Below, in pieces: positions 9,782-52,599 of a stretch of 64,000 nucleotides of DNA. Position 1 is the first letter of the stretch; every line of letters begins with the position of its first letter. The position numbers were made by a program, and so were the translations under genes. The stretch covers positions 1,798,001 to 1,862,000 of the forward strand of contig CM065880.1 in NCBI GenBank assembly GCA_033439255.1. The letters run 5' to 3'. Below the pieces are notes generated by a model. That model was not told the DNA's origin. It made no database searches and worked only from the letters and a program-made list of their open reading frames with translations. This DNA comes from Hericium rajendrae. Lineage: Eukaryota; Basidiomycota; Agaricomycetes; Russulales; Hericiaceae.

Positions 9782-11787
9782 TCAGCAAGGACACAAAATG
9801 ACCTTCTTCGCAATCTTCCTGCGCTTCAGTTTAGCTACGTTGGATGTGTTTGCCTTGGACAACGGCAAATTCAGCGTATCGAGCATCCCGCCTCGCTTCC
9901 CCCGCTTCTCCAAAACAACTAACAGCCGCTTCCAGAACAGCTTATCTCCGCGGGTCTTCTGCTCGCTGAGATCCAACTTTCTGATCGCAAGGACTTTGAG
10001 GTTGGGCAGAAACAGAGGCGTGTCCGAGTCCGCGCCCTCTCCTTCAAGACCGTCGGCAAGCGCTTCTGTGAACGCCATGGCAGCCACTGTGACGTGGACT
10101 TCCTCGATCTGCGTCTGCGTCCGCAAGATGTCGAGCCACTCCTCCGGACTCAGACTCTTGCCGTAGGCAGCAATGACAAGGCGCTTGCAGGAGGTGAGCG
10201 GCAGCCTGGACATTATCCCCGTCATTGCGAGTGCCCTGTCCCATTCCGCACCATCGTCCTGATGCAACTCCAAGTTGAATATATAGTCTGTAGAGTCTCC
10301 ACCCCTGTTGAACGTATCTGTTGGGTGAGCGCTGGTGATAATGGTCAGGCCCTGAAATCCGCAAGGACGTAAATGGAGCGAGCGAGTGGGACGCTTGTTG
10401 GTTTCGCAGAGCTGATTGCGCTTGAGGAGCAAGTTCACAAGGCGATAGATTGGATCACCCATGAAATCATCTGCATCTTCGAAGTAGCAGCCCAGGGATA
10501 GGTAGGCCGTATAGGGGATGTCGAGGGAGGGAACCAAGGCCAGACAGTCTTCGACCGTCCCTTGGAGTTTCAGCATCGTAAAATGAGAAAGAGCCACTTT
10601 TCGCGCCCACGAGGCTGCAGACACGGCCTCGGCAGAGACACTCGCTATTGCATGATCCAATTGCAAGGTTTTCAGCAATGGCATCCGCGCAAGCATATCC
10701 AAGAGCTCTGAACAAGAAGGTAATTCTGAAGGTGACCAGTGGACCAAGCCATGAGTTGAATGTCCGGAGCTCCATTGAAAAGCCATCATCGCGTCAGTGC
10801 CTTCCTCATCGTTGTTGTCCTCTTCATCGTTGTTGTCCTCCCCATCGTTGCCGTTCTCCCCATCCTCATCCTCCGTGTCGTCATTTACGTGGTCATTGCC
10901 GGGGCCAACTTCCAAAGCAGGAGGCGTATTCTGCTGGGTTTGCTCGTCATCAGCATCGTCATTGAGTACGGGAACATCGGATTCGTCATCACTAAATCCA
11001 GTGTGCGAATACTCATCCGTGGGGAAATCCGGTAGTTCCCTGGGTTCGCCTATCTCAGGTTCGGTTGATCGTGGAGAGATATCCTGCAATATTTCACGGT
11101 CTCGCTGAATACGGGCGAGCTCCACGGGACGATGACGTCTCGCAGGTAGATGGAGTCTAGCCGCGGGGCGTTATTGCCCAGGAACGGAGTTGGTAGCGGA
11201 AGAAGCAAGTCGCTAAATTCATATTGTTGGTGCGCAGCCTCTAGTTCCAAGCTCTCCAGCAATGGCGCAGGCGCCGACAGGAACGACATCCACTTGGGCA
11301 TCTGGAACTTGTCGTGCGTGAACGTGAGAGACTTGATGCGGCTGAACGGTTTGCACAAGGCTTTGACGACCTCATATGGACGATGAGATATATCGACTGT
11401 GAGGGGGTTGTTGCTGGTGCGGACGAGCATCTCCTTCGTCCAACGCAGACCGAGACGGGCGTCGAGGTTGGTCCAGAGTCGGGGGGTGTTTAGCGCTACG
11501 GACCGCCAGTACCAACACACATGCGTCGCCAGAATCCAACCAAGCTTTCTCTTTCGAAGAGGCCGAACGAAGTCGGTCACAGCAAGGAGGGCCAAGATCT
11601 CTGCAACTACCTCGACGGGCAGGGTGCAGATTGTGATACGGCCATTAAGGCGTGCGCGGAGCGCGTATCTCTTGGCATCCAGGGAACGTAGCTCATCTTG
11701 GATCTGTTGACGCTCTTTTTCGATCGCGGCGAGAGCCAAATTCGCGTCGAGCTCTTCTTCACGACGTGTTTCCTTTGGGGAAGCCAT
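9782..11787 (-). CDS. F-box/LRR-like protein, with a frame break
   Basis: Start ATG 11787 (MASPKETRREEELDANLAL); an in-frame upstream ATG exists at 11874. A coiled N-terminus (IEKERQQIQDELRSLDAKR) is followed by an F-box at about residues 55-105 (ICTLPVEVVAEILALLA ... HVCWYWRSVALNTPRLW) and leucine-rich segments. Around 11125-11050 the frame changes: the first frame stops at a TAG after HDQPNLR, while the second frame carries an acidic stretch (Asp/Glu/Asn repeats near 10870-10795), more LRR-like sequence and the tail KKVILCPC. No intron of normal size bridges the two, so a small deletion or sequence error is likely. Architecture and tail match the second F-box gene at 30442. Known family role: substrate adaptor of SCF ubiquitin ligases. 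May be a recent pseudogene. Confidence 0.75.
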
Positions 11788-12513
11788 CCTACTAAAACAT
11801 GAGCGGACATGGGATGATCGCTGAAATGCCAGCTCACTTGAATATTCTAAACGTATACACCTAGTAAGAAACATTACAGTCGACTGCCCAGATCGAGCTC
11901 GTCCGTAAAGCCTGCCATAGACAAATGTATGAGACGCACCGAACTATGCCGCCAGTTCATATAGAATGTAACCAAAGCGTCCCCACGCGTTTTGAAGCGT
12001 CGTCTGTCCAAAAAGCTTTGCCAAACTATGAAGGCAGTTGGTGGAGAGGTAAAGACAAGTCGCTACCCTTGCGGCGAGTCGACGCGTGCGGCGTCTGCGA
12101 GACGCGCCCACGCTTTTTTTTTGTTCATGTCCGGGTGAGCCGGAAGCCGGCGCGGATCCGCGGCCCGCCTCCCTCTGCAAAGTTACCTTGCTTGTCAAGG
12201 TCTCTCGCACCCCCGTAATTATTAGCGCCCCGACTCACATCGACAACAGTGACAAACAAAGGTTCGGCCCACATCATGATCTACTGTTTCAATTTGTCTA
12301 GCACTCCAATCATATACCGGAACCCTTTTTCTCGTCAACGATCGTGTTTTATGTTTCTAAAATTTCTAAGATGCCTTTCTTGTCTAAGAATTAGACAGGC
12401 AAGACGTTACAACTCGAAGAGCCGACATCGTGACTAGTCACAGCCCCGGTGACTTGAATCACACCCTCCCATTTCTCGACAGTCGGCTCACACTAACGTG
12501 CAAGAACTTAGGC
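11788..12513. other. Intergenic, divergent promoter region
   Basis: About 725 bp between the divergent F-box gene and the gene at 12514. It contains two ACGCGT hexamers (near 11983 and 12079) and a T9 tract near 12113. No gene recognised. Confidence 0.45.
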
Positions 12514-29902: not shown

Positions 29903-30441
29903 GTTTTGGGGTTGGTTAGACGGGCTGCGTAGTGTTCGGATAGACATAATATACGCGACTGTAACTTCGACTCCTTCGTACTTCCTGGCATAAAATTGTG
30001 ATGATGATGTTAAACACTAGCGGAGAGAACATAGAAGTTGGTCATGACGGGCTGTTGTAACGATACGACTGCGACACTCAGGGACTCAACTGCTTCCGTG
30101 TGTCGATACGTCATAGTCTTGGCGGCTGCGATCGTGTACATACGGCTCGAGACGGCTCGTCGCGTCGCCGTCGCTCCTTCGAAAATCGACGCGTCCGATC
30201 ATCCTGGACGTGAACCTCATCTTATCTCCCTGGCAGTCACACAATACAGACAGGCAACTATTTAGTCAGGAGAGCATCTGTGAGTCTTGTTTGATTCTTC
30301 TGATGCTCTAGACGTCATGCATCAGCTCCCAATCCATTGTGGAGAAGTATGATGTTAAAAACGTCCAAATCTCGCATTTTCTCTTGCTATCTGATCGATT
30401 TCGAGGCTCATGCACGTTCCGTCACTCTGATTTTCTAGGTT
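29903..30441. other. Intergenic
   Basis: About 540 bp: porin 3' UTR and promoter of the second F-box gene. No repeat or RNA gene recognised. Confidence 0.45.
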
Positions 30442-32388
30442 ATGCCATCAGTGTCGCGCCTGAGCATCGCCGACGAACGGGAAGAGGTTCTACGACAAAT
30501 TCGCGAAAAAGACACCCTCTATGACAAGCTCAACGCTCGCATACTGGCCAGCACCGCTCCCCTCGAAATTCTGTTGGATATCTTTTTCATTCTTCGCCAC
30601 ATCGATGTCGGTTATGGCGACCCACTTCAGTGGGTGAGAGTTACGCACGTGTGCTCGCGATGGAGAAGGATAGCCCTCAGTGTTCCCGCTCTTTGGAACC
30701 AGATATTTTTCAACTTCAGCCAACGGTTCACAAAAGAAATGTTCCGTCGCTCCAAACCCGCCCAGTTGGATGTATGGTTCTTCGGAGGCACGCCTGCTCA
30801 ATTCCGTGACGTGCAACGGAACATAGAACGCGTCAAGGGTCTCTCGCTCCTGGACGTGGAGGGTGACATATTCTCTGCGTGTCAAAACCTCATTGTGCCT
30901 GCGCCGAATCTCCAATCTCTCGCCATTCAGCTCTTGGACTTCGAATGCTCAACCTCGGATTTGGGGCGCGTGCTACCCCTCCCGGATGGGCTTCTCGGCG
31001 GCGACGCGCCTCAATTGAATAGGCTCCGTCTCGACGGCGCAACACTCGCCTGGAACGCCCGCATTCTCAGGCGAATGCCAAATCTCACGCACTTGCGACT
31101 GGGGCTGCCAACTATCGATGATTATGATTTTGGGGACATAGCTCGGGATTCCGGGGAGTTCAGTGACACTGAAGAGGAGGAGGGGGAAGATCAAGATGAA
31201 GCGGCGATAGCCCATACTGCAAGTGAACATCCCGCGGAAGCATATGTACCTGACGGCCAAGCTCTCCCACCATCATCGGTCCCCCTTTTGCAATCTCCAA
31301 TCACGTCCGCTATCCTCGACGATATGGACGTCGAAGCAATTGTGGCAGCAGCGAACTTGCAGCATGCTGGAGACTCAGACTCAGATTTCGACGGCTCCAA
31401 TACAGGCTCCGAATTTGAGGACGAAGAGATGGACGTCCTGGATCCAAGACCTCCCGCAGAGTGGACTGACATCTTTGGTATGCTGAAAAGCATGCCGAAG
31501 CTTCAAGAACTGGACTTAGCCTATGCTCTTCCTCACCCAGATATCTCTTCCGGCGCTCTTCCCCCCACCGAACAACTTACACTCTCCGATCTCAAGAGCC
31601 TGCACCTTGAAGACCGAGCGGAGAGCATTAAGTTGATCATGCAGCACCTCCATCTTCCAAATCTCCGGCACCTCGTTCTTAAAACCGTCGAGCAGCACGG
31701 CTCGGTTGAAGACTCGACATCATTGTACGAGATCCTCAATGCGCATTGCGAGAAGACGAAGTCCAATGGGAGTGCAGTGCACACTCTCGATATCTCGATT
31801 TCGGACAAATGGACTATAACCATCAAGGGTCTCCTTGCACTTTGGCCCAAAGACGAGAGAGAGCAGGATGCCATTTTCAGGCTGAAGATCCAGCAATCCA
31901 GTCCGCACGACCGGGGGACGGCAGATGTCCTTCTGCCCTTGCTCGAAGGACTGCAGATCCCTTCGCTGAGGCGCGTCGTCGTGCACGGGTTTGGGCAGAC
32001 CATCCAGGGGTGGGACTGGGTAACAGCGTTCCGCCACCTTTCGAACATTGAAGAAGTCTCTGTGGGCGCGGCGGCTCCGCACTTTTTCCAAGCCATGGGC
32101 AGCGCACTTAGCGCTCTGCCTCCAGATATGCCGCCGCCAGCAGAAGGCGAGTGGGAGATATTCCTGCCAAGCCTAAAAATCCTCGAGCTGAGGAAAGGAG
32201 CGCAGCTCAGCAGGAAATCTTACGGCCAACCGATTCGCGGCTGGGAACAACTTGTCGGGGTGCTCGAAGCGCGAGGCGAAGCGCTGGGGCTGGAGAAGCT
32301 GGATATCCGTCAGAGTAAGCTTCGGCCTGCAACGCGGACGGAGATCGAGCGACGGGGCATCGCGAAGACTGTTCTGTTCCCGTCCTAA
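30442..32388 (+). CDS. F-box/LRR-like protein, single exon
   Basis: One uninterrupted frame of 648 residues, unusual here where most genes are intron-rich. A coiled start (DEREEVLRQIREKDTLYDKL) leads to an F-box at about residues 36-86 (STAPLEILLDIFFIL ... VTHVCSRWRRIALSVPALW). Leucine-rich-like segments follow (NRLRLDGATLAWNARILRRM, NLTHLRLGLP). A central acidic insert (SDTEEEEGEDQDE) and a second acidic patch (SEFEDEEMDVLD) precede more LRR-like sequence and the tail RRGIAKTVLFPS. Tail, coiled start and acidic insert match the gene at 9782-11787, so the two are paralogues. The F-box suggests an SCF substrate adaptor; target unknown. Confidence 0.88.
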   Translation: MPSVSRLSIADEREEVLRQIREKDTLYDKLNARILASTAPLEILLDIFFILRHIDVGYGDPLQWVRVTHVCSRWRRIALSVPALWNQIFFNFSQRFTKEMFRRSKPAQLDVWFFGGTPAQFRDVQRNIERVKGLSLLDVEGDIFSACQNLIVPAPNLQSLAIQLLDFECSTSDLGRVLPLPDGLLGGDAPQLNRLRLDGATLAWNARILRRMPNLTHLRLGLPTIDDYDFGDIARDSGEFSDTEEEEGEDQDEAAIAHTASEHPAEAYVPDGQALPPSSVPLLQSPITSAILDDMDVEAIVAAANLQHAGDSDSDFDGSNTGSEFEDEEMDVLDPRPPAEWTDIFGMLKSMPKLQELDLAYALPHPDISSGALPPTEQLTLSDLKSLHLEDRAESIKLIMQHLHLPNLRHLVLKTVEQHGSVEDSTSLYEILNAHCEKTKSNGSAVHTLDISISDKWTITIKGLLALWPKDEREQDAIFRLKIQQSSPHDRGTADVLLPLLEGLQIPSLRRVVVHGFGQTIQGWDWVTAFRHLSNIEEVSVGAAAPHFFQAMGSALSALPPDMPPPAEGEWEIFLPSLKILELRKGAQLSRKSYGQPIRGWEQLVGVLEARGEALGLEKLDIRQSKLRPATRTEIERRGIAKTVLFPS

Positions 32389-43035: not shown

Positions 43036-43389
43036 ATGTACTGACGATTGACGAAACTATATAATTTTCAGTCACTGCAGGAAGCCCCGACATTAAAGCC
43101 TGAAACATTGTGCACCTCTACCAAATTATAATAATAAAATATTAGAGGAGCTGCACGACATGATATCTAATCTGCAACGATGTCAAGGGGTTTGTGCGCT
43201 GCGGAGGTTGCTGGTCTCGGATGCCAGGCCTGGATTGATCATAGCGCCACCTGGTGCGATGAGACGATGTCGTTTTTATCGCCCTTCGGTCCGCGATCAT
43301 GGCGAGTCATATCGACCCTCGTTCGACCTAACGACCACAATACCCTCTCTCCAAGTCGTCTTCGGACGTCGCATCTCCACTCTTTCAGC
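43036..43389. other. Intergenic, upstream of PNP oxidase
   Basis: About 350 bp. The PNPO frame remains open upstream to about 43180 with extra in-frame ATGs at 43180 and 43267, so part of this may encode an N-terminal extension. Confidence 0.4.
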
Positions 43390-44145
43390 ATGGATGCCAT
43401 GGATTCCGCGATCGTTAAGGAGACACCAGATAAAATCCAAGTTGTTCGCCACCAGCAGTACGAGACGCCAGACATCCTCTCTCCGACTACTGTTAAACCG
43501 AATCCAATCGACCAATTTCGTATATGGTTCACCTCGGTGCAAGGCAAGGTCGCTGAGCCAGAAGTCATGACGCTTTCCACCGCTACGGCATCCGGTATTC
43601 CGTCGTCTCGCAACGTCCTCTTTAAACAGCTGGACCCGCGTGGCTTCGTGTTTTTCACGAACTACGAATCACGCAAGTCGCGCGAGCTGCAGGAGAATCC
43701 CCATGCAGCAATCGTGTTCTACTGGCCGGAGGTCCATCGGCAGGTGCGCGTGCTGGGGCGGGCGGAGAAAGTGAGCAAGGAGGAGAGCGAGGCGTACTAT
43801 CGTAGCCGGCCCCTTGGGAGCAGGATCGGTGCTTGGGCGAGCAAGCAGAGCAGCGTTGTAGGAGAGGATGAACTTCCGAAACAGGTGAAGGACGTCGAGA
43901 ATCGTTTTGGAGTTCCGGAGGGAGCTGAGGATGCAGAGATCCCTTTACCTGAGTTTTGGGGCGGATGGAGGATAATCCCAAGGTATTATTCATCTGACAT
44001 CTAAATGCATTTTGATTGACTCCATGACAGCGAAGTAGAATTCTGGGCTGGGAAGCCCTCACGTTTGCACGATCGAGTACGATACCTCCGTCTGGATCCG
44101 GCGCAGCAGTCATCAGAGTGGAAGATAGAGCGACTCTCTCCATAA
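43390..44145 (+). CDS. pdx3: Pyridoxamine 5'-phosphate oxidase
   Basis: FMN enzyme oxidising pyridoxine or pyridoxamine 5'-phosphate to pyridoxal 5'-phosphate. Start ATG 43390 ([15 protein letters not shown]) is chosen by family length; the in-frame ATG 43267 would add a Ser/Arg-rich, presequence-like extension. One intron (about 43984-44030) joins in phase, and TAA ends at 44145. Family landmarks in order: [55 protein letters not shown], the substrate/FMN region [36 protein letters not shown], and the C-terminal [18 protein letters not shown] with the conserved W..RLHDR signature. Complete and intact. Cytosolic, or mitochondrial if the longer start is used. Confidence 0.95.
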
Positions 44146-44321: not shown

Positions 44322-45790
44322 TCAGAGTCCAAAAAGGCCGTCAACAATCTTGCCTATTCTTGTAAATATTCCTCCTCCCTGACCGCCACTTGCTCGTGCC
44401 TCATTGTATTGCTGTTGTAAGCGATTCATGTGGTTTTGAAGGGCTTGCCTCTCGGCATACGCATCATTTGCCGTTCGCTGGAGCTGATCCTGGAGGACCT
44501 GCATCTGACGAGTGTGTTCCGCCATGGCAGCCTCAGCATCCCTCGCTGCCTGCGCCTGCATCTCCTTCATTGTTATCTCCATCCTGGTCTTTTCCTCCTT
44601 ATACTCAGTCGCCAGCCTCGTTGACTCGTTCTGGAGACGCGACATCTCCCTTTGCAGCCTCTGAGACTCCTGCTCGAGCTCTCTCCTCGTTTCCTCATCC
44701 TTCGCCTGGATAGCGGCCCGCATCTCCTCCTGTAGAAGCTTCAGCTCTTGCCTATGCTTCCGAGCCTGCTCCATGAGCTCGCGACTGAGCGTTTCTCCAG
44801 CCGCCGTCTCCGAGATGTCGAGGTGCTGGTCAACGAGTTCGCGCTGGATCCGCAGCGCCTCGGGGCGGTTCTCGAGCAGATACTGCAGGATCGTCTGCGC
44901 GCTCTCCCGCGTGTTCTCGTGGCGAAGCAGCTGCGCGCCCTTCTCGAGGACAGGTCTGAAGAAGATCTCGTTGTCGCGGAGCTCCGCTTCGCGCTCCTCG
45001 CCGACCTCGCGCTCGACCTGGCCCCACATGTTCGTGACGATGACCACGTTCTTCAACGTCGAGTCTCCGCACAGCTGGCGGAACATGCTGAAGTTCCGCC
45101 TGGAGACACCTCCCATTCGGACATCGGAGATCCGGTGCATGTATACGACGCCGGTGAGCTTCATGCCTTGCTCGTAGCTGCACATGGCTGATCAGCTGTG
45201 AATCTGCGAGGAACGAGACGAACGTACGAGGTCGAAAGAAACAAGGCGATCAGCTTCAGGATGTCGGTGTCGCTCTTATTTGTATCGTCGAACCCGGGCG
45301 TGTCGATGAGCGTGATCCTGTGGCCATCGAATTCAAAGAGGGGCGCTAGCTGCACGTCGCTTGTGCACGATGTGAGGCCTCGTCCAATTCGCATATCGGA
45401 TCCGCTGACGAGGTTGATGAACTGGCCATAGTGAGTCAGGTATTGCCAATCACCACGGTTTGGTATATTTACTGACAGTCGTTTTCCCGCTTCCTGTTGC
45501 GCCCATGACGCTAAAGGTACGCTGCGTTAGAAGACACAGCGAAGTCGGCATCCGGTTCTCGCTCACGCAATCAGTGTTTCATTGGTGCGCTGAGCAAGTA
45601 GTGAGCGGGCAGAACATCAACAAGAACTAAATATACGAACAGTCCTTCTGCTCTCTGCATAAACTTGCCTTGACGCTTGCCTTGGCTGGCTCATGGCCAC
45701 GTTCCGCGACCCATTGGCAGGGGGTGTGTACCGAGGGGGAGTGGCGTAAAGGTCTCTGGAGTTCTGATTGCTGCCTTGCCTGAAAGACAT
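44322..45790 (-). CDS. AIG1/GIMAP-like GTPase A with coiled coil and hydrophobic C-terminus
   Basis: Start ATG 45790 (MSFRQGSNQNSRDLY). Four introns; one falls just before the P-loop (LIA|VMGATGSGKT) and one right after it. The G domain shows G1 GATGSGKT, a G2-like Thr in LTSCTSDVQ, G3 DTPGF and VIVTNMW near the G4 position. Then KLTGVVYMHRISD and NFSMFRQLCGDSTLKN match its two paralogues. From about residue 220 a long charged coiled coil (RELMEQARKHRQELKLLQEE, REMSRLQNESTRLATE) runs almost to the end. The last residues, GGGIFTRIGKIVDGLFGL, form a glycine break and an amphipathic hydrophobic end; there is no CaaX box. AIG1/GIMAP proteins of plants and animals are membrane-associated, self-assembling GTPases of immunity. 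Function here unknown. Confidence 0.88.
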
Positions 45791-47277
45791 TGTGCGAGGT
45801 TGTAAATCGGGTGGTTTGTGGGTTTCAGTGGGCAATGGAGAAGGGAGGTCGAGCAGCGCCGTCTGTAAGCTATTGTGATTTTATTCCTTAGGCAACAATT
45901 TCTTAAACTGAATCGGGCAGTGCCTCGCCATGAAAGCAAGGCAATGCTCATTTAACCTCATCCGACATTCCATGTTTGCAACGGACCCTTCTACGGAACG
46001 CCACTGCGATAACAAACATTGTTCTACGAATCCCTTCGTCCCTCGGAATCAGATCGGTACAGCAGACGCGCGACTTCACGGAATGAAGGCGGGAATAGCT
46101 CACATGGTGGACATGCATCTCCTAAGCTTGCTTCCAGTCATTACTAGTGCGTCAACGGAACAATTGGTGGCGGCGCCACTACTGAATTGACAAACTCCAG
46201 TATATGGCTGGGAACATCCTGGCGGTGCTAGTTCAAGCATTGCTACTCGCTTCCGCGATTAGAGCACCTTCTTGACGGTCACGGAATCACTGCTTCCACG
46301 ATACGTGCAGAAGTTACGAAGGAATGCGGCGTGCTGTTTAAATGGCAAAGAATCCATGTCGGTATATCTATCACAAAACGCGACTTCGATCCACAGTCCT
46401 AGGATGAAGACCCGCAAAGGCACGCAGCAGCGCTTACCCTTGTTGGGATTACGGATGCATCGCGAAAAGACGATCGTGTCTATCTTTGGGAACAAGCCTA
46501 GATTTTGCGATGGACCAGGCGAGAAAGCGGGAGCAGAAGGTTGGTCAGGACGACATGAAACTCAAAATGATGCGTCTCTCCGCGACCTGTGAACCAACAA
46601 ACTGCTTTGCATTGCAGAATTACAGATGATTTGCCTTCGGGCAAGGAGAAATCTTAGCTCTGATATGATTTTTTCCCAGATTGTTTGGCGACCGTCACTA
46701 GTGATTGTAATATGGAATCCTCAACGATAAGACTGAAGAAGGTCACGATCAACAAGGTATACAAGGCATCTCAACGGCATTCCAGACGCCCATCTGTCTG
46801 CCTACGATCTGCAGACGGCGTTGCCCTGTCATCTAAACATCGCTTAGCGCTCCCTGCGGAACACGAGACCACCAAGCATTTGGAGTAGAGTGGTGCAGCT
46901 CAACATGGGAGTGATAAGGCAGGGTCGCCCGTTGTCCCCCTCGAAATCTACCGACGGTGTTTGAGGGGCACAGGATGCCGCTTCCCTTCCGACAAGAAAC
47001 CAAGCGTATCCCGTATCAAGGTTCCTGCCCTGCAGGACCGAAACGTGGGGATGTCTTAGTGCACCAGACACTCCAAAAGAAACCCACGAGGACACAGCAT
47101 TGACAATAACGTTCGATCAAATTCAGCATGCCCGAGAAGTTACCGATGAGTATCGCATTGCATCTATGAACACGGAGCTAAACGCACCTACATATAATCG
47201 CGGGATAACTCACAGGTCAAGCACTATACCATCCTTCTCTCGGCCACCCGGACTCCGTTACACCGTCTACAGTCATC
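45791..47277. other. Head-to-head interval between GTPases A and B
   Basis: About 1.5 kb between divergent starts. A TATA-like CATATAAT lies at 47191-47198, about 85 bp before the GTPase B start. Short open frames near 46270-46590 and 46844-47095 have no family resemblance. No repeat was recognised. Confidence 0.4.
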
Positions 47278-48711
47278 ATGAGCTACCCTCTATACTCCGC
47301 TCCTGCTCTCCCACCGCGGTTAGTTTCTCATCACTGAAAATCATAGGCCATACTGAAGATTTACCATGACTTAGTACAACTTCTACGCAGGCCAGCAAGA
47401 AAAAACAGCGAGTGAGTTTGGGGTCGAACATTTCGACACGCGAGTCTGAGATTAGCCGTCTTCCACTTTTCGCCAGTCAGCAAGTGATAAGGTCACAATC
47501 GCGTACGACTCCTCCCCTCCTTACTGGATGCAATGAGACTCATTCGCCCTATAGCATTATGGGTGCAACAGGGAGTGGAAAATCAACGGTTCGATTTCCC
47601 TACCTTCATGCTGTTCCACCACTTACGTGTATCTCTAGTTTATCAACATGGCTAGTGGATCGCATCTCGGCGTCGGGTTTGGTTTGGAGTCATGTACCAG
47701 TGACGTACAGACCGCGCAGGCGTTCGAGCTCGATGGGCGGAGGGTCATGCTCATCGACACGCCTGGCTTCGACGATACCTCGAAGAGCGACACAGATATC
47801 CTGAAACTAATCGCATCGTTTCTGCAGACCACGTAGGTACTTCCGCTGGTACCTAGGGCGCGGAATATCACTGAGTCGGTTTTATTAGATACGAGAAGGG
47901 AATGAAATTGGCTGGCGTCATCTATATGCATCGCATCATGGACGTCCGCGTCGGTGGCATCTCGAAGCGCAACTTCAGCATGTTCCGCGAGCTCTGTGGC
48001 GACTCTACCTTGAAGAATGTAGCCATTGTCACCACCTTCTGGAGCGAAGTCACGCCTCAGCTCGGCGAGGCGCGCGAAGCGGAGCTACGGGGCAAGGATA
48101 TCTTCTTCAAGCCCGTACTTGACAAAGGCGCTTGCATGCTTCGACATTCCAACACCGTCGACTCTGCCCATGATATTCTGAGGCAGCTCGTCGACAATCG
48201 CCCCACGGCCCTCCGCATCCAACGCGAGCTGGTTGATCAGCACCTAGACATCTCGGAGACAGCAGCTGGTGCCACACTCAGCCGGGAACTCCTCGAGCAG
48301 GCGAAGAAGCATAGAGAGGAGATCAAGGCGCTTCAGGTTGAAATGCAGGAGGCAATCCGAACGAAAGATGAGGAGACCAGGAAGGAGTTAGAGGAGGAGT
48401 CTCGCAAGCTGCAGAATGAAATGCATAAGATGCAGACGGAGTCACAACAGCTTGCCAACGAGTACAAAGTAGAGAAGATCGAGATGGAGCGCCGCATGAA
48501 GGAGATGCAAGAGAAGGCGAGGGAGGAGGCAGAGCAGCAGAGACAGGCACACATAGCTCGTATGCGCGAGCTCGACGAGCAGATGCAAAACTCGGCAAAA
48601 CAGTCGGTTGCGGAGAAGCGGAGGATGCAGGAGCAGATGGATGCTCTGCAAAGGCAATATGATGCTCTGGCCGCGGACGACTCCGATTCTGACTGGTGCG
48701 TCGTGGCTTGA
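47278..48711 (+). CDS. AIG1/GIMAP-like GTPase B with CaaX C-terminus
   Basis: Start ATG 47278 (MSYPLYSAPALPPR); intron 1 ends at the AG before TACAACTTC, and the frame then runs open into the P-loop IMGATGSGKST. An intron after the P-loop joins to FINMASGSHLGVGFG. Motifs: G1 GATGSGKS, G3 DTPGF in RRVMLIDTPGFDDT, and VAIVTTFW at the G4 position. Shared body KLAGVIYMHRIMD, NFSMFRELCGDSTLKN. A C-terminal coiled coil of about 150 residues (REEIKALQVEMQEAIRTKDE onward) ends DSDSDWCVVA, so the last four residues are a CaaX prenylation box. The stop TGA is 48709-48711. It pairs head-to-head with GTPase A and is closest to GTPase C. Confidence 0.87.
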
Positions 48712-49843
48712 AAGTCTGATGGACCGGTTTCGCTGCCTGCTTTGCTCTTGCTCCATTATGCCTGCGATGTTGTCAATGCAGATGAATTTCTTGCTTTGAA
48801 GTCACGTTCGAGAGAAGGAGGCGTGCGCATCTCGACGGCTGTTACAGATTTATTGCTCTCCTTCCGCTGCCATTCACTAAAGCAGGCTTAGCTCCCTTAT
48901 CAAAATAGAGAGTGGACAATGGCAAGCGGGCCATATTTATGGGCTGTAACAGGCCTGGAATCTGCGACGGACAGGTGCCCACTAGTACTAAGGTGCAAAT
49001 GCTGACGGAGATGGTAGGTCGGCACCTCCGGTACGTCCACATGAGGCTCTAACAAATACTCATCATGACCGAGACAGTCATCGCCGTAACTGCGTTTGCC
49101 CAGCTACATCACAGAATCACACTTCATGTCCGCAATCAATAAGCTGTTTCACAGAAGGTATCGTAGCGGCGTCGTCAACGTTCACCCTTCACCCACCGTT
49201 GCAGGACCTTGGCTTCGGACTGGCCATTGTTTACAAGTAATGCTGAATTCTAGATTTTAACCCGTATCGACAGGTCCGTCAAGCATGCAGCTTGACATCG
49301 CAGCGATAAGAGCCAATGCCAACGGCTCACTATCTCTCTGGCACGTGCCAACTTAATCGTATAGTATCCGGCAGGGTCAGTACAAGACGCCGCCTTCATT
49401 CCCGACCAGAAGCCAGGTATATTCCATATCAAGACAGGACCCCTTCTTTGAAGCTTCGAAACGCGTCAATGGTTTCCTACGCCGAATATTCCGAGAAAAA
49501 CATGAGGGTACCGCGTTGACAGTAAGTGATCAATCGTATTCGACCGAAGAAACTGCGGATCGCTGCGGATCTACGGCCACGGACATCTGGATACACACAT
49601 ATTTATACGGCTGGACGGAGCGAAGAATAACCACCGTCTGAACCACCATCTAAGATTTGTCCTTAGCATGCATCACGATCCAGATTCCAGTCCTCCAGTT
49701 CTGACTCCGTGGCGGTGAGCGTCTTGTCATAAAGATGTATGGGCCATGCTGAAATTTTTGAGTACCTAGCAACACCCCCTTCGTGAAACAATTCATCAGC
49801 AAAGCTATCGGAAACTTGGCATCTTTGCCAGCCGCAGTCGCGT
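48712..49843. other. Interval between tandem GTPases B and C
   Basis: About 1.1 kb with no supported gene. The last ~60 bp (about 49835-49895) align with the region just before the GTPase B P-loop, marking the edge of the B/C duplication. Confidence 0.4.
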
Positions 49844-51044
49844 ATGGTCTCATCGCTATTCACCAGCTGCATCGAGACTGATACGTGCTACAGTGTCATG
49901 GGGCCAACGGGGAGCGGAAAGTCCACAGTCAGATATATATATTTTCAGCCTTGATGATGTCTTACCACTGACGCATGGCTAGTTCATAAACATGGCTAGC
50001 GGGTCGCACCTGGGCGTCAGTTCGGGCTTGAAGTCCTGTACTAACGATGTACAGATTTCCAACCCATTCGAGCTGGATGGGCAGAAGATTATCCTTGTCG
50101 ACACGCCCGGTTTCGACGATACGGGAAAGAGCGACGCCGATATCTTGAGGCTCATTGCGTCATGGCTGCAGATCTCGTAGGTTCTTCCGTCGACACCAGT
50201 AAAATATCATTAATTTGGCAATTGGCATAGATACGAGAAGGGCATGAAGCTGACCGGTATAATCTATATGCACCGCATCACGGATAACCGTCTCGGCGGC
50301 ATTTCCAAGCGCAACTTCAGCATGTTTCGAGAGCTCTGCGGTGACTCTACACTGAAGAATATTGCCATTGTCACCACCTTTTGGAACGAAGTAGACCCCC
50401 AGGTCGGGGAGAAGCGTGAGGCGGAGCTACGAGGCGAGGATATCTTCTTCAAGCCTGTACTTGACAAAGGCGCACGCATGCTTCGGCATTCCGACACCGT
50501 CGAGTCAGCCTATGGCATCCTGAGGCAGCTCATTAGAAACTGCCCCACGGCACTTCACATCCAACATGAGCTAGTCAATGAACACAAAAATATATCGGAT
50601 ACAGCAGCCGGTGCGATGCTCAGCCAGGAGCTCCTTGAGCAGGTGGAGAAGCACAAAGAGGAAATCAAAGCACTTCAGGCTGAGAAGGAGGAGGCCATCA
50701 GGAGGAAAGACGAGGAGACGAGGAAGGAGATGGAGGAGGATGCTCTCAAGCTGGAGGCAGAGAGGAAGAAAATGCAGGCAGACTCGCAACAGCTTGCCGA
50801 AGAGTATGAAGCAGAAAAGTTGGAGACAGAGCGCCGTATGCGGGAGATGAAAGGCAAGATGAGGGAGGAAGCAGAGCAGCAGGAAGAAGCATACAGAGCC
50901 CGTATAGACGAGCTCGAGAAGCAAATGCAAGATGCAGTAGCACTGTCGGCTGAGGAGAAGGAGAAGATGCAGGCGGAGTTGCACGAGCTGCAAACGCAGC
51001 GTGACGCTATAGAGGCGCAGTGCCCTGATTGTGTTATAGCTTAG
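49844..51044 (+). CDS. AIG1/GIMAP-like GTPase C with CaaX C-terminus
   Basis: The earliest in-frame ATG, 49844, gives only 18 residues before the P-loop VMGPTGSGKST, so an upstream exon may be missing. Introns follow the P-loop (to FINMASGSHLGVSSG) and the G3 block. Motifs: G1 GPTGSGKS, G3 DTPGF in KIILVDTPGFDDT, and IAIVTTFW. Body KLTGIIYMHRITD, NFSMFRELCGDSTLKN. The coiled coil is longer and more charged than in B (KKMQADSQQLAEEYEAEK, then EAYRARIDELEKQMQD). The protein ends IEAQCPDCVIA, a CaaX box (Cys-Val-Ile-Ala), stop TAG 51042-51044. The G domain is very similar to B throughout: a recent tandem duplicate. Same family and caveats as A and B. Confidence 0.85.
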
Positions 51045-51271: not shown

Positions 51272-52599
51272 TTAGACAGCAAGCTCTCCCTTCGCAGCCG
51301 TCCAGCAGACTTTGGCACGCTCTTCGAAAGCCTTCCTCGCGCCAGCCTCGTCTCCGGTGACCCACTTCGTCATGGCATCTCCCTGAAGACCCCTGCCGAA
51401 GGAGAACGTGAGCGGGGGAAGCCGGGTAAGTGCCGACGGCGACTTCGCGGATTTGACAATCTTGTTAATCGTGTGCAGATATGACGCTGCGTCAGAGTCG
51501 GAGAGGCCGCCTGGGTGACATCGGACATCTCAGAAACATTATCAATATAATCTGGAAGCGAAGGACGGACCTGAGAGGAAGACAACCCCCGCCACGCCAA
51601 CGGGGACTGTGCGAGCAAGGACTGTAGCAGTAGCAAGCGCAATATCATCCACGCTAGTTGTTTTGCGAGAAGGATGCTGAAGCCCGGGCTGAGCGAAAGA
51701 TGGCTTAATTAAGGATCCTATGAAGGCGGTGTTCATTCAAGGTGATAATCGGAGATAACATAAACAACAAACCTTCAAGTAGGACGCCATATGCAATGCA
51801 CCTGGCATAGATCATGCTGATGATCTTCGTGTGGACCTCCACGCTCCTCTGCAAGTCAGCGTCACCGGAAAAATCGACATCAGGCTCCACGATAGGGACT
51901 AAGCCTGCCTGCTGGCTGATCGCTGCGAAGCGAGCTAGGTTCTCAGCCTGCGCCTCCAATGCCGCCTGCGTAGGGTACGTCGAAGCCGTGCAGAGGATCG
52001 GGGCGCGCCACTTGGTGAAGCGACCGCCCGCGACTCTGGCAGCTTGCAGACGCGGCAGGAGATCGTCAAGGCCCTGCGTGGCAGGCTCGGCGGGAGAAAT
52101 CGGCAAAGGATGGGAGTCGGTGTCCGCACGCACACCAGGAATGATGCCGCGCTGCTGGAGAGCTGGCGCGAGCTGGAAGTCGACCAAAGTTTCATGGAAC
52201 AAAATGACTCCAGAGATGTACTCTAAATTATACACCGGCAAGTAATCAGCATTGACGTCACATAACAAAGAGGGGCGGGGGGTATTCACCCGTGGGCAAT
52301 GTCTCATACAAGCACTCGCGCCAACGGCGGCGCTTTTCGCGTTGCTCCTCCTCGGACCATGCTTTACCTTGGCCCCCTTCTCCGAACGCGGCGATCAACC
52401 TGGCCTGGATGCCAGCAGGCGTCTCATCCGTGGCATAGATACCTTTTCCACGGGGATTGACGAGGGCAGTAGCAGTGGCGATGAGCTCATCTGCAACAGA
52501 CGAGCTGTGGTAAGGATACAGGAACGAGTTGCTTGCTCCGTGGGCAGCGCCGGTGGAGAAGGTGTAGCCCGGGGTACTCGTTGCGTTAAGGTCAGACAT
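51272..52599 (-). CDS. Fructose-bisphosphate aldolase, class I (Schiff-base type)
   Basis: Start ATG 52599 (MSDLNATSTPGYTFSTG), stop TAA 51274-51272, introns near 52287-52227, 51773-51721 and 51574-51512. Order of class I landmarks: ELIATATALVNPRGKGIYAT DE (family: ..GKGILAADES), then EYISGVILFHETLVDF, RFTKWRAPILCT with the active-site Lys of the KWR motif, VPIVEPDVDF, VEVHTKIISM, the Schiff-base Lys in LLEGSLIKPSFAQPG, VPVGVAGVVFLSGGLSDSDA, and LTFSFGRGLQGDAMTKW. The usual C-terminal Tyr is absent (ends KGELAV). It cleaves fructose-1,6-bisphosphate in glycolysis. Well-studied fungi mainly use the zinc class II enzyme, so this may be a second aldolase. Confidence 0.93.

What the first reader, a model, noticed from the sequence alone, without database searches (positions are those of the whole stretch)
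44322..51044. Cluster of three AIG1/GIMAP-like GTPases, two with CaaX prenylation boxes
Three paralogues lie within 7 kb, A and B head-to-head and B/C in tandem. Each has a P-loop (GATGSGKT/S or GPTGSGKS), DTPGF and a long C-terminal coiled coil. B ends DWCVVA and C ends PDCVIA: both stop exactly after Cys-aliphatic-aliphatic-Ala, the substrate form for farnesyl transferase. AIG1/GIMAP proteins of plants and animals self-assemble on membranes in immunity. A prenylated fungal version with a coiled-coil arm would be a distinct membrane-scaffold GTPase system; the immune or allorecognition link is my inference.
Basis: partly seen in the sequence, partly recalled or inferred. Interest (0 to 1): 0.75.

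Follow-up and report, generated by a model that had tools for sequence, protein, structure and literature searches.

The report
Mushroom GIMAP-like GTPases, two membrane anchors
A mushroom carries a cluster of three GTPases that look like the GIMAP immunity proteins of animals and plants, two ending in a signal for a fatty (prenyl) anchor and one in a short greasy helix, and relatives in other mushroom-forming fungi show one or the other ending again and again.

Summary
Three intact spliced GTPase genes lie where stated; B and C end CVVA and CVIA. The closest relatives are Hericium alpestre proteins with the same cluster and ends. By fold search the G domains are GIMAP/Toc-like, though plain sequence searches rank GTPase Der/EngA first. 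The arginine aligned with GIMAP7's finger is invariant in 172 of 172 rows. Prenylation and membrane location remain predictions.

Added here: gene A has a second end type, a 15-residue amphipathic tail. Of 179 proteins (175 database, 4 own), 52 end in CaaX, 82 in this tail, 45 in neither. On a quick G-domain tree CaaX changes 20 times, at least 12 forced by starred branches. Of 27 species with two or more listed members, 12 have both ends. A fourth gene elsewhere ends CIIA. The arm is not a heptad coiled coil in most relatives: period 99.6, not 102.9 degrees.

Likely function: nucleotide-driven dimers anchored at the far end, scaffolding membranes as GBP1 does. Immune or allorecognition roles are untested. 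A prenylated AIG1 has a plant precedent (PMC6866125, passages).

The parts
44322..45790 (-). Gene A, 418 aa, exons 45641-45790, 45567-45589, 45477-45510, 45228-45421, 44322-45177; GIMAP-like G domain, helical arm, amphipathic tail
   Evidence: H. alpestre EWM64_g598 is 96% identical; the two 5' exons are by my own splice choice
44325..44378 (-). Gene A C-terminal tail GGGIFTRIGKIVDGLFGL (last 18 codons before the stop)
   Evidence: hydrophobic moment 0.64 over the last 15 residues; this end type in 82 of 179 family members
47278..48711 (+). Gene B, 384 aa, exons 47278-47318, 47375-47411, 47477-47502, 47555-47588, 47639-47832, 47889-48711; GIMAP-like G domain, helical arm, CaaX
   Evidence: H. 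alpestre EWM64_g597 is 95% identical; Pfam AIG1 30.0 bits
48697..48711 (+). Gene B CaaX box CVVA plus stop
   Evidence: sequence; enrichment
49844..51044 (+). Gene C, exons 49844-49927 (5' end uncertain), 49983-50176, 50231-51044; GIMAP-like G domain, helical arm, CaaX
   Evidence: H. alpestre EWM64_g596 matches with 96-100% identity over the last 45 alignment columns but 63-89% per block over the first 280
51030..51044 (+). Gene C CaaX box CVIA plus stop
   Evidence: sequence; CVIA is named as the yeast a-factor CaaX in PMC10320760 (passages)

Best explanation
These are GIMAP/Toc-like GTPases that build membrane scaffolds. The G domain binds nucleotide and pairs with another G domain across the nucleotide, the invariant arginine of each acting on the other's site. 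A roughly 130-residue, straight, amphipathic helical arm leads to a membrane anchor at the far C-terminus: a prenyl group on B, C and the unlinked gene D, a 15-residue amphipathic helix on A. Nucleotide-driven pairing would align two arms and two anchors so that coats form on a chosen membrane, as farnesylated GBP1 does. The two anchor types would send paralogues to different membranes, or let mixed pairs bridge or tune them. Shown by sequence: genes, ends, their recurrence, the invariant arginine, the arm's period. Predicted: fold. Inferred: prenylation, membrane binding, dimerisation, coats, any defence or recognition role.
Against: No expression, localisation or biochemical data. NKxD is absent: the site reads TNMW[GS]E, W in 172 of 172 rows, so guanine specificity is unproven. 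VIA margins over other GTPases are small (17.2 against about 15 to 16), and sequence searches of the PDB put Der/EngA first. The tail's predicted helix lies in a stretch of pLDDT about 46 to 48. 45 of 179 proteins have neither end. D's arm has about equal power at 100 and 103 degrees.
Confidence: 0.6

Rival explanations
1. Membrane tethers whose G domain only senses nucleotide or is structural; the arm lies flat on the membrane like an apolipoprotein and the anchor fixes its end.
For: G4 reads TNMW instead of NKxD. The arm period, 99.6 degrees, suits a straight surface-lying helix. 6 of 66 members match the Pfam apolipoprotein model at E up to 0.001 and apolipoprotein chains appear in a profile search, though composition may explain both.
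Against: The P-loop, switch Thr and the arginine column are kept, which suggests that catalysis is kept.
Confidence: 0.2
2. A general membrane-traffic or signalling GTPase; prenylation is ordinary targeting and the cluster a plain tandem duplication with no scaffold role.
For: Septin, MMR_HSR1, FeoB_N and Dynamin_N models also match; Der/EngA lead sequence searches of the PDB.
Against: GIMAP and Toc structures rank first with both models; a long conserved arm and alternating ends are unlike Ras-type GTPases.
Confidence: 0.15
3. About evolution, and compatible with the best explanation: the apparent swapping of ends comes from gene conversion that homogenises G domains within a species while two old end types persist at separate loci.
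For: C against its H. alpestre counterpart is 63-89% identical per 35-column block over the first 280 columns and 89-100% after that, where B/C-type paralogues are 41-75% alike. On 109 rows the arm tree forces 3 changes by starred branches, the G-domain tree 7.
Against: The arm tree has 61 columns, little resolution, and still needs 13 changes, as many as the G-domain tree.
Confidence: 0.4

Closest known systems
GIMAP (AIG1/IAN) GTPases, e.g. human GIMAP7 and GIMAP2
   Same: G-domain fold, P-loop, DTPG, an arginine at the finger column, clustered paralogues; mammalian members come with and without C-terminal membrane segments (PMC3804274, passages)
   Different: Mammalian members are said to lack prenylation motifs (same passages); G4 differs; the fungal proteins have a long arm and CaaX or amphipathic tail at the extreme end
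Arabidopsis AIG1 (IAN8)
   Same: AIG1 G domain and, by a review, prenylation (PMC6866125, passages)
   Different: Not compared here; whether plants have the amphipathic-tail alternative was not tested
Toc33/Toc34
   Same: Next-best structural matches; two arginines aligned with a Toc34; C-terminal membrane anchoring (PMC12845241, passages)
   Different: Chloroplast protein import (same passages)
Guanylate-binding protein GBP1 (dynamin superfamily)
   Same: GTPase, long helical C-terminal region, CaaX farnesyl, nucleotide-driven pairing and coats (PMC11746146, passages)
   Different: Another GTPase family; analogy only
Septins
   Same: Related G domain; C-terminal helices and amphipathic helices (PMC11238149, passages)
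   Different: Septin Pfam score under its cut-off for A to D; no CaaX in the passages seen
AIG1 proteins already mentioned from fungi
   Same: AIG1 domain: AIG1-Hint proteins of Glomeromycotina (PMC8778642, passage; PMC7490403, passages); AIG1-kinase fusions mentioned for fungi (PMC7053062, passages)
   Different: Other domain layouts; no CaaX or tail mentioned in the passages seen

Membership tests
AIG1/GIMAP family | Pfam AIG1 model over its gathering score | tested here: inconclusive
   B 30.0 over 27; A 22.0, D 23.1 and a C fragment 25.8 under it; 56 of 66 aligned relatives match at E up to 0.001, which is not the cut-off
AIG1/GIMAP family | GIMAP/Toc G-domain fold | tested here: met
AIG1/GIMAP family | Arginine at the trans-acting finger position | tested here: met
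   Aligned with GIMAP7 chain position 108; R in 172 of 172 rows; catalysis untested
AIG1/GIMAP family | RKxE/D-type G4 motif | tested here: not met
   TNMW[GS]E, W in 172 of 172 rows, where GIMAP7 reads TRKEE
AIG1/GIMAP family | Nucleotide-dependent dimerisation | not testable with these tools
   needs purified protein
CaaX prenyl proteins | Cys-aliphatic-aliphatic-X at the exact C-terminus, conserved | tested here: met
   B, C, D and 49 of 175 database relatives
CaaX prenyl proteins | Prenyl group attached | not testable with these tools
   needs mass spectrometry or labelling
Septins | Septin Pfam model over cut-off | tested here: not met
   at most 22.6 against 26.2 bits for the window proteins
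Dynamin superfamily/GBP | Dynamin_N Pfam model over cut-off | tested here: not met
   at most 23.4 against 27 bits for A to D
Heptad coiled coil (arm) | Hydrophobic period near 102.9 degrees | tested here: not met
   Median peak 99.6 in 129 arms, 2 nearer 102.9 than 100; A, B, C peak at 99, D about equal at 100 and 103; two frames of an own-genome myosin-tail-like locus peak at 101.9 and 102.8

The most novel reading that the evidence does not exclude
Mushroom-forming fungi have a GIMAP-like non-self or damage-response system in which paralogous GTPases, one with a prenyl anchor and one with an insertable amphipathic tail, co-assemble through their G domains on straight arms. The tail-bearing partner would insert into and remodel or break a target membrane once recruited by the prenylated partner, with G-domain divergence, as seen in gene C between Hericium species, tuning who pairs with whom.
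Probability: 0.15. Interest if true: 0.88.

Novelty: new variant of a known kind. Interest (0 to 1): 0.6.

Why it matters
GIMAPs have been described as lacking, as far as known, in representative fungi such as yeast, although the same paper mentions an AIG1-kinase form in fungi (PMC7053062, passages), and AIG1-Hint proteins are reported from Glomeromycotina (PMC8778642, passage). Here 1,334 proteins matched gene B at E up to 0.001, a number that may include other GTPases; the named ones among the listed best 120 are, by my recall of their taxonomy, mushroom-forming fungi. Such a family offers a tractable system to ask how these GTPases choose membranes. The repeated pairing of a prenyl end and an amphipathic end on one G-domain and arm plan is a natural experiment in membrane anchoring.

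Tried and rejected
Rejected: CaaX ends as chance. Rejected: A as a truncated CaaX gene; its tail is kept in H. alpestre and this end type occurs in 82 of 179 proteins. Rejected: a heptad coiled coil for the arms of A, B and C. A cruder a/d-position test passed its shuffles for A, P0007 and P0020 and failed for B, C and D; it does not separate periods. D is undecided. In one search the control locus L012 is a myosin-tail-like match under the Pfam cut-off (30 against 38.1 bits); L015, a weak tropomyosin match, peaked at 101.9; for the tropomyosin pieces L013 and L014 the script took wrong frames, so they are no control.

Led nowhere: Pfam AIG1 against the whole own genome gave no hit, probably because exons are short. 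NCBIfam gave no match over a cut-off for P0002, P0003 and P0007. The ten paper searches listed no account of this fungal family; the library holds openly licensed papers only, lists were capped, and 13 papers were opened, for matching passages alone (in one, PMC12609287, no term matched). Fungal genomes other than the window's were not available, so nearness of CaaX and tail genes elsewhere rests on equal contig lengths and locus tags (EWM64_g596-598, Moror_3873/3874, PC9H_009486/009489, VNI00_013245/013248).

Limits: each protein search listed the best 120 of 1,334, 1,111 and 596; the survey is not a census. End classes come from regular expressions, and the tail regex itself demands parts of the motif. 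Trees are quick ones with SH-aLRT only. P0138 has no DTPGF and was left out of the tree. In one search rows were chosen by having D[TS]PGF at residue 45 or later, so D, P, G and F there are invariant by construction; 7 of 179 rows were dropped. In one search, 109 of 114 CaaX or tail rows then at hand were kept, 129 of 134. Alignments for folding used 66 of the 137 database proteins then at hand. The species table was typed by hand from the listings.
Full report
WHAT IS THERE. The three genes are real and intact. Models with GT..AG introns give A (45790 to 44322, minus strand, 418 aa), B (47278-48711, 384 aa) and C (49844-51044, 5' end uncertain). The two introns inside the G domain are at the same sites in A, B and C and in D. 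B ends CVVA, C ends CVIA, A ends in a hydrophobic tail. B versus C looks constrained (dN/dS 0.136/1.07 over the first 200 codons, 0.249/0.70 over the rest). The genome is 46.8 Mb in 19 contigs; the nearest proteins are H. alpestre EWM64_g598 (A, 96%), g597 (B, 95%) and g596 (C), which keep the same ends.

THE REST OF THE GENOME. A search of the own genome, scoring only best candidates, found one further intact member, D, on contig C13, ending GGGGDCIIA, and a broken fragment on C5 with an internal stop and a large deletion that still ends CIMA. So three of the four intact members found end in CaaX. PF00432, the family that includes prenyltransferase beta subunits and also squalene cyclases (recalled), matches over its cut-off at three places, contigs C3, C4 and C8, some pieces with stops inside; which gene is farnesyltransferase was not worked out.

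TWO KINDS OF END. I classed C-termini of 179 proteins (175 database, 4 own genome) with fixed patterns: 52 CaaX, 82 amphipathic tail, 45 neither; among the 175 database proteins 49, 81 and 45. A slightly different pattern on the first 120 gave 26 CaaX. The CaaX pattern occurs at 6 of 28,103 positions in the preceding 160 residues, and 0.05 ends were expected by composition. The last residue is M in 24, A in 10 and Q in 9 of the 52, forms usually taken by farnesyltransferase (recalled); CVIA is the yeast a-factor end (PMC10320760, passages). The tail, roughly [FL]FxxIGRALDxIFGL, runs a median of 15 residues to the stop, with mean hydrophobic moment 0.58 and hydrophobicity 0.73, against 0.31 and 0.01 in 1,394 arm 16-mers of the same proteins. 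Those in neither class include partial models, proteins with other hydrophobic ends, and H. alpestre P0138, the D counterpart, whose listed end looks like a shifted frame of the Gly-rich stretch.

RECURRENCE. On a quick G-domain tree of 178 rows the CaaX label needs 20 changes (shuffled mean 45.3, none of 500 as low), at least 12 forced by starred branches; CaaX against tail alone needs 16. Small sets with both ends include rows from Pholiota molesta, Collybia nuda, Psilocybe cf. subviscida, Amanita muscaria and Somion occarium (species). Against simple swapping: G domains may be homogenised. C and its H. alpestre counterpart differ strongly over the first 280 columns but hardly in the last 80, and a lower-arm tree forces only 3 changes, though it has just 61 columns and still needs 13.

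THE ARM. The models show near-continuous helix of about 130 residues after the G domain. Its hydrophobicity has one sharp period: median 99.6 degrees per residue in 129 arms, 115 between 99 and 100.5, 2 nearer 102.9 than 100; mean power at 100 is 10.2 in the tail group and 6.9 in the CaaX group, against a shuffled maximum near 1.0. A, B and C peak at 99; D is weak and about equal at 100 and 103 (2.3 and 2.25). Two frames of an own-genome myosin-tail-like locus peak at 101.9 and 102.8 by the same script, with power 0.4 and 1.0 at 99.6. The stripe is about 100 degrees wide, more acidic on one flank and more basic on the other. This fits a straight helix pair or a helix lying on a membrane rather than a heptad coiled coil. 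Six of 66 members match the Pfam apolipoprotein model, and apolipoprotein chains appear at E 0.0006 to 0.009 in a profile search; charged helices can give such matches by composition, so this is a hint only.

HOW IT PROBABLY WORKS. Nucleotide-driven G-domain pairing, straight arms, anchor at the far end: the layout of farnesylated GBP1, which frees its farnesyl on nucleotide binding, pairs its GTPase domains and coats membranes (PMC11746146, passages). Membership in GBPs is not claimed. Two anchors would give two destinations or mixed assemblies. Every functional step here is inference.

NOVELTY. Mammalian GIMAPs are said to carry no prenylation motifs (PMC3804274); Arabidopsis AIG1 is listed as prenylated (PMC6866125); GIMAPs are described as lacking in representative fungi such as yeast, though an AIG1-kinase form in fungi is mentioned (PMC7053062) and AIG1-Hint proteins in Glomeromycotina (PMC8778642); all seen as passages. 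The paper searches listed none on the mushroom family. I rate it a new variant of a known kind.

Noticed in passing
window 49844-51044 (gene C): C and H. alpestre EWM64_g596 are 63-89% identical per block over the first 280 columns but 89-100% in the last 80: mosaic divergence, by conversion, introgression or diversifying selection.
   Followed up: partly
L010 (contig C13, 324500-331500): Fourth intact family member D, same G-domain intron sites, Gly/His-rich end GGGGDCIIA; several CaaX proteins listed with it also have His- or Gly-rich stretches before the Cys.
   Followed up: partly
L011 (contig C5, near 2424126): Broken family fragment: P-loop and DT piece running into an arm end that closes GGWCIMA, with an internal stop.
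   Followed up: no
H. alpestre P0124 (EWM64_g154): An extra A-like protein, 64% identical to A over 88%, with no counterpart found in a capped search of the window's genome.
   Followed up: no
window 49844-49927: The intron donor just before the P-loop exon in B and D is not seen in C; the frame reads through from an ATG at 49844, so the 5' end of C is uncertain.
   Followed up: partly
window 43171-44004 and 51705-52394: The cluster is flanked by a pyridoxamine 5'-phosphate oxidase frame and a class I fructose-bisphosphate aldolase frame.
   Followed up: no
window 30439-32388: F-box-like protein; a similar-looking frame lies at 9782-11943 (by eye).
   Followed up: no
L015 (contig C14, near 805014): Open frame with near-perfect heptad repeats of the DQVNQRL kind.
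   Followed up: no
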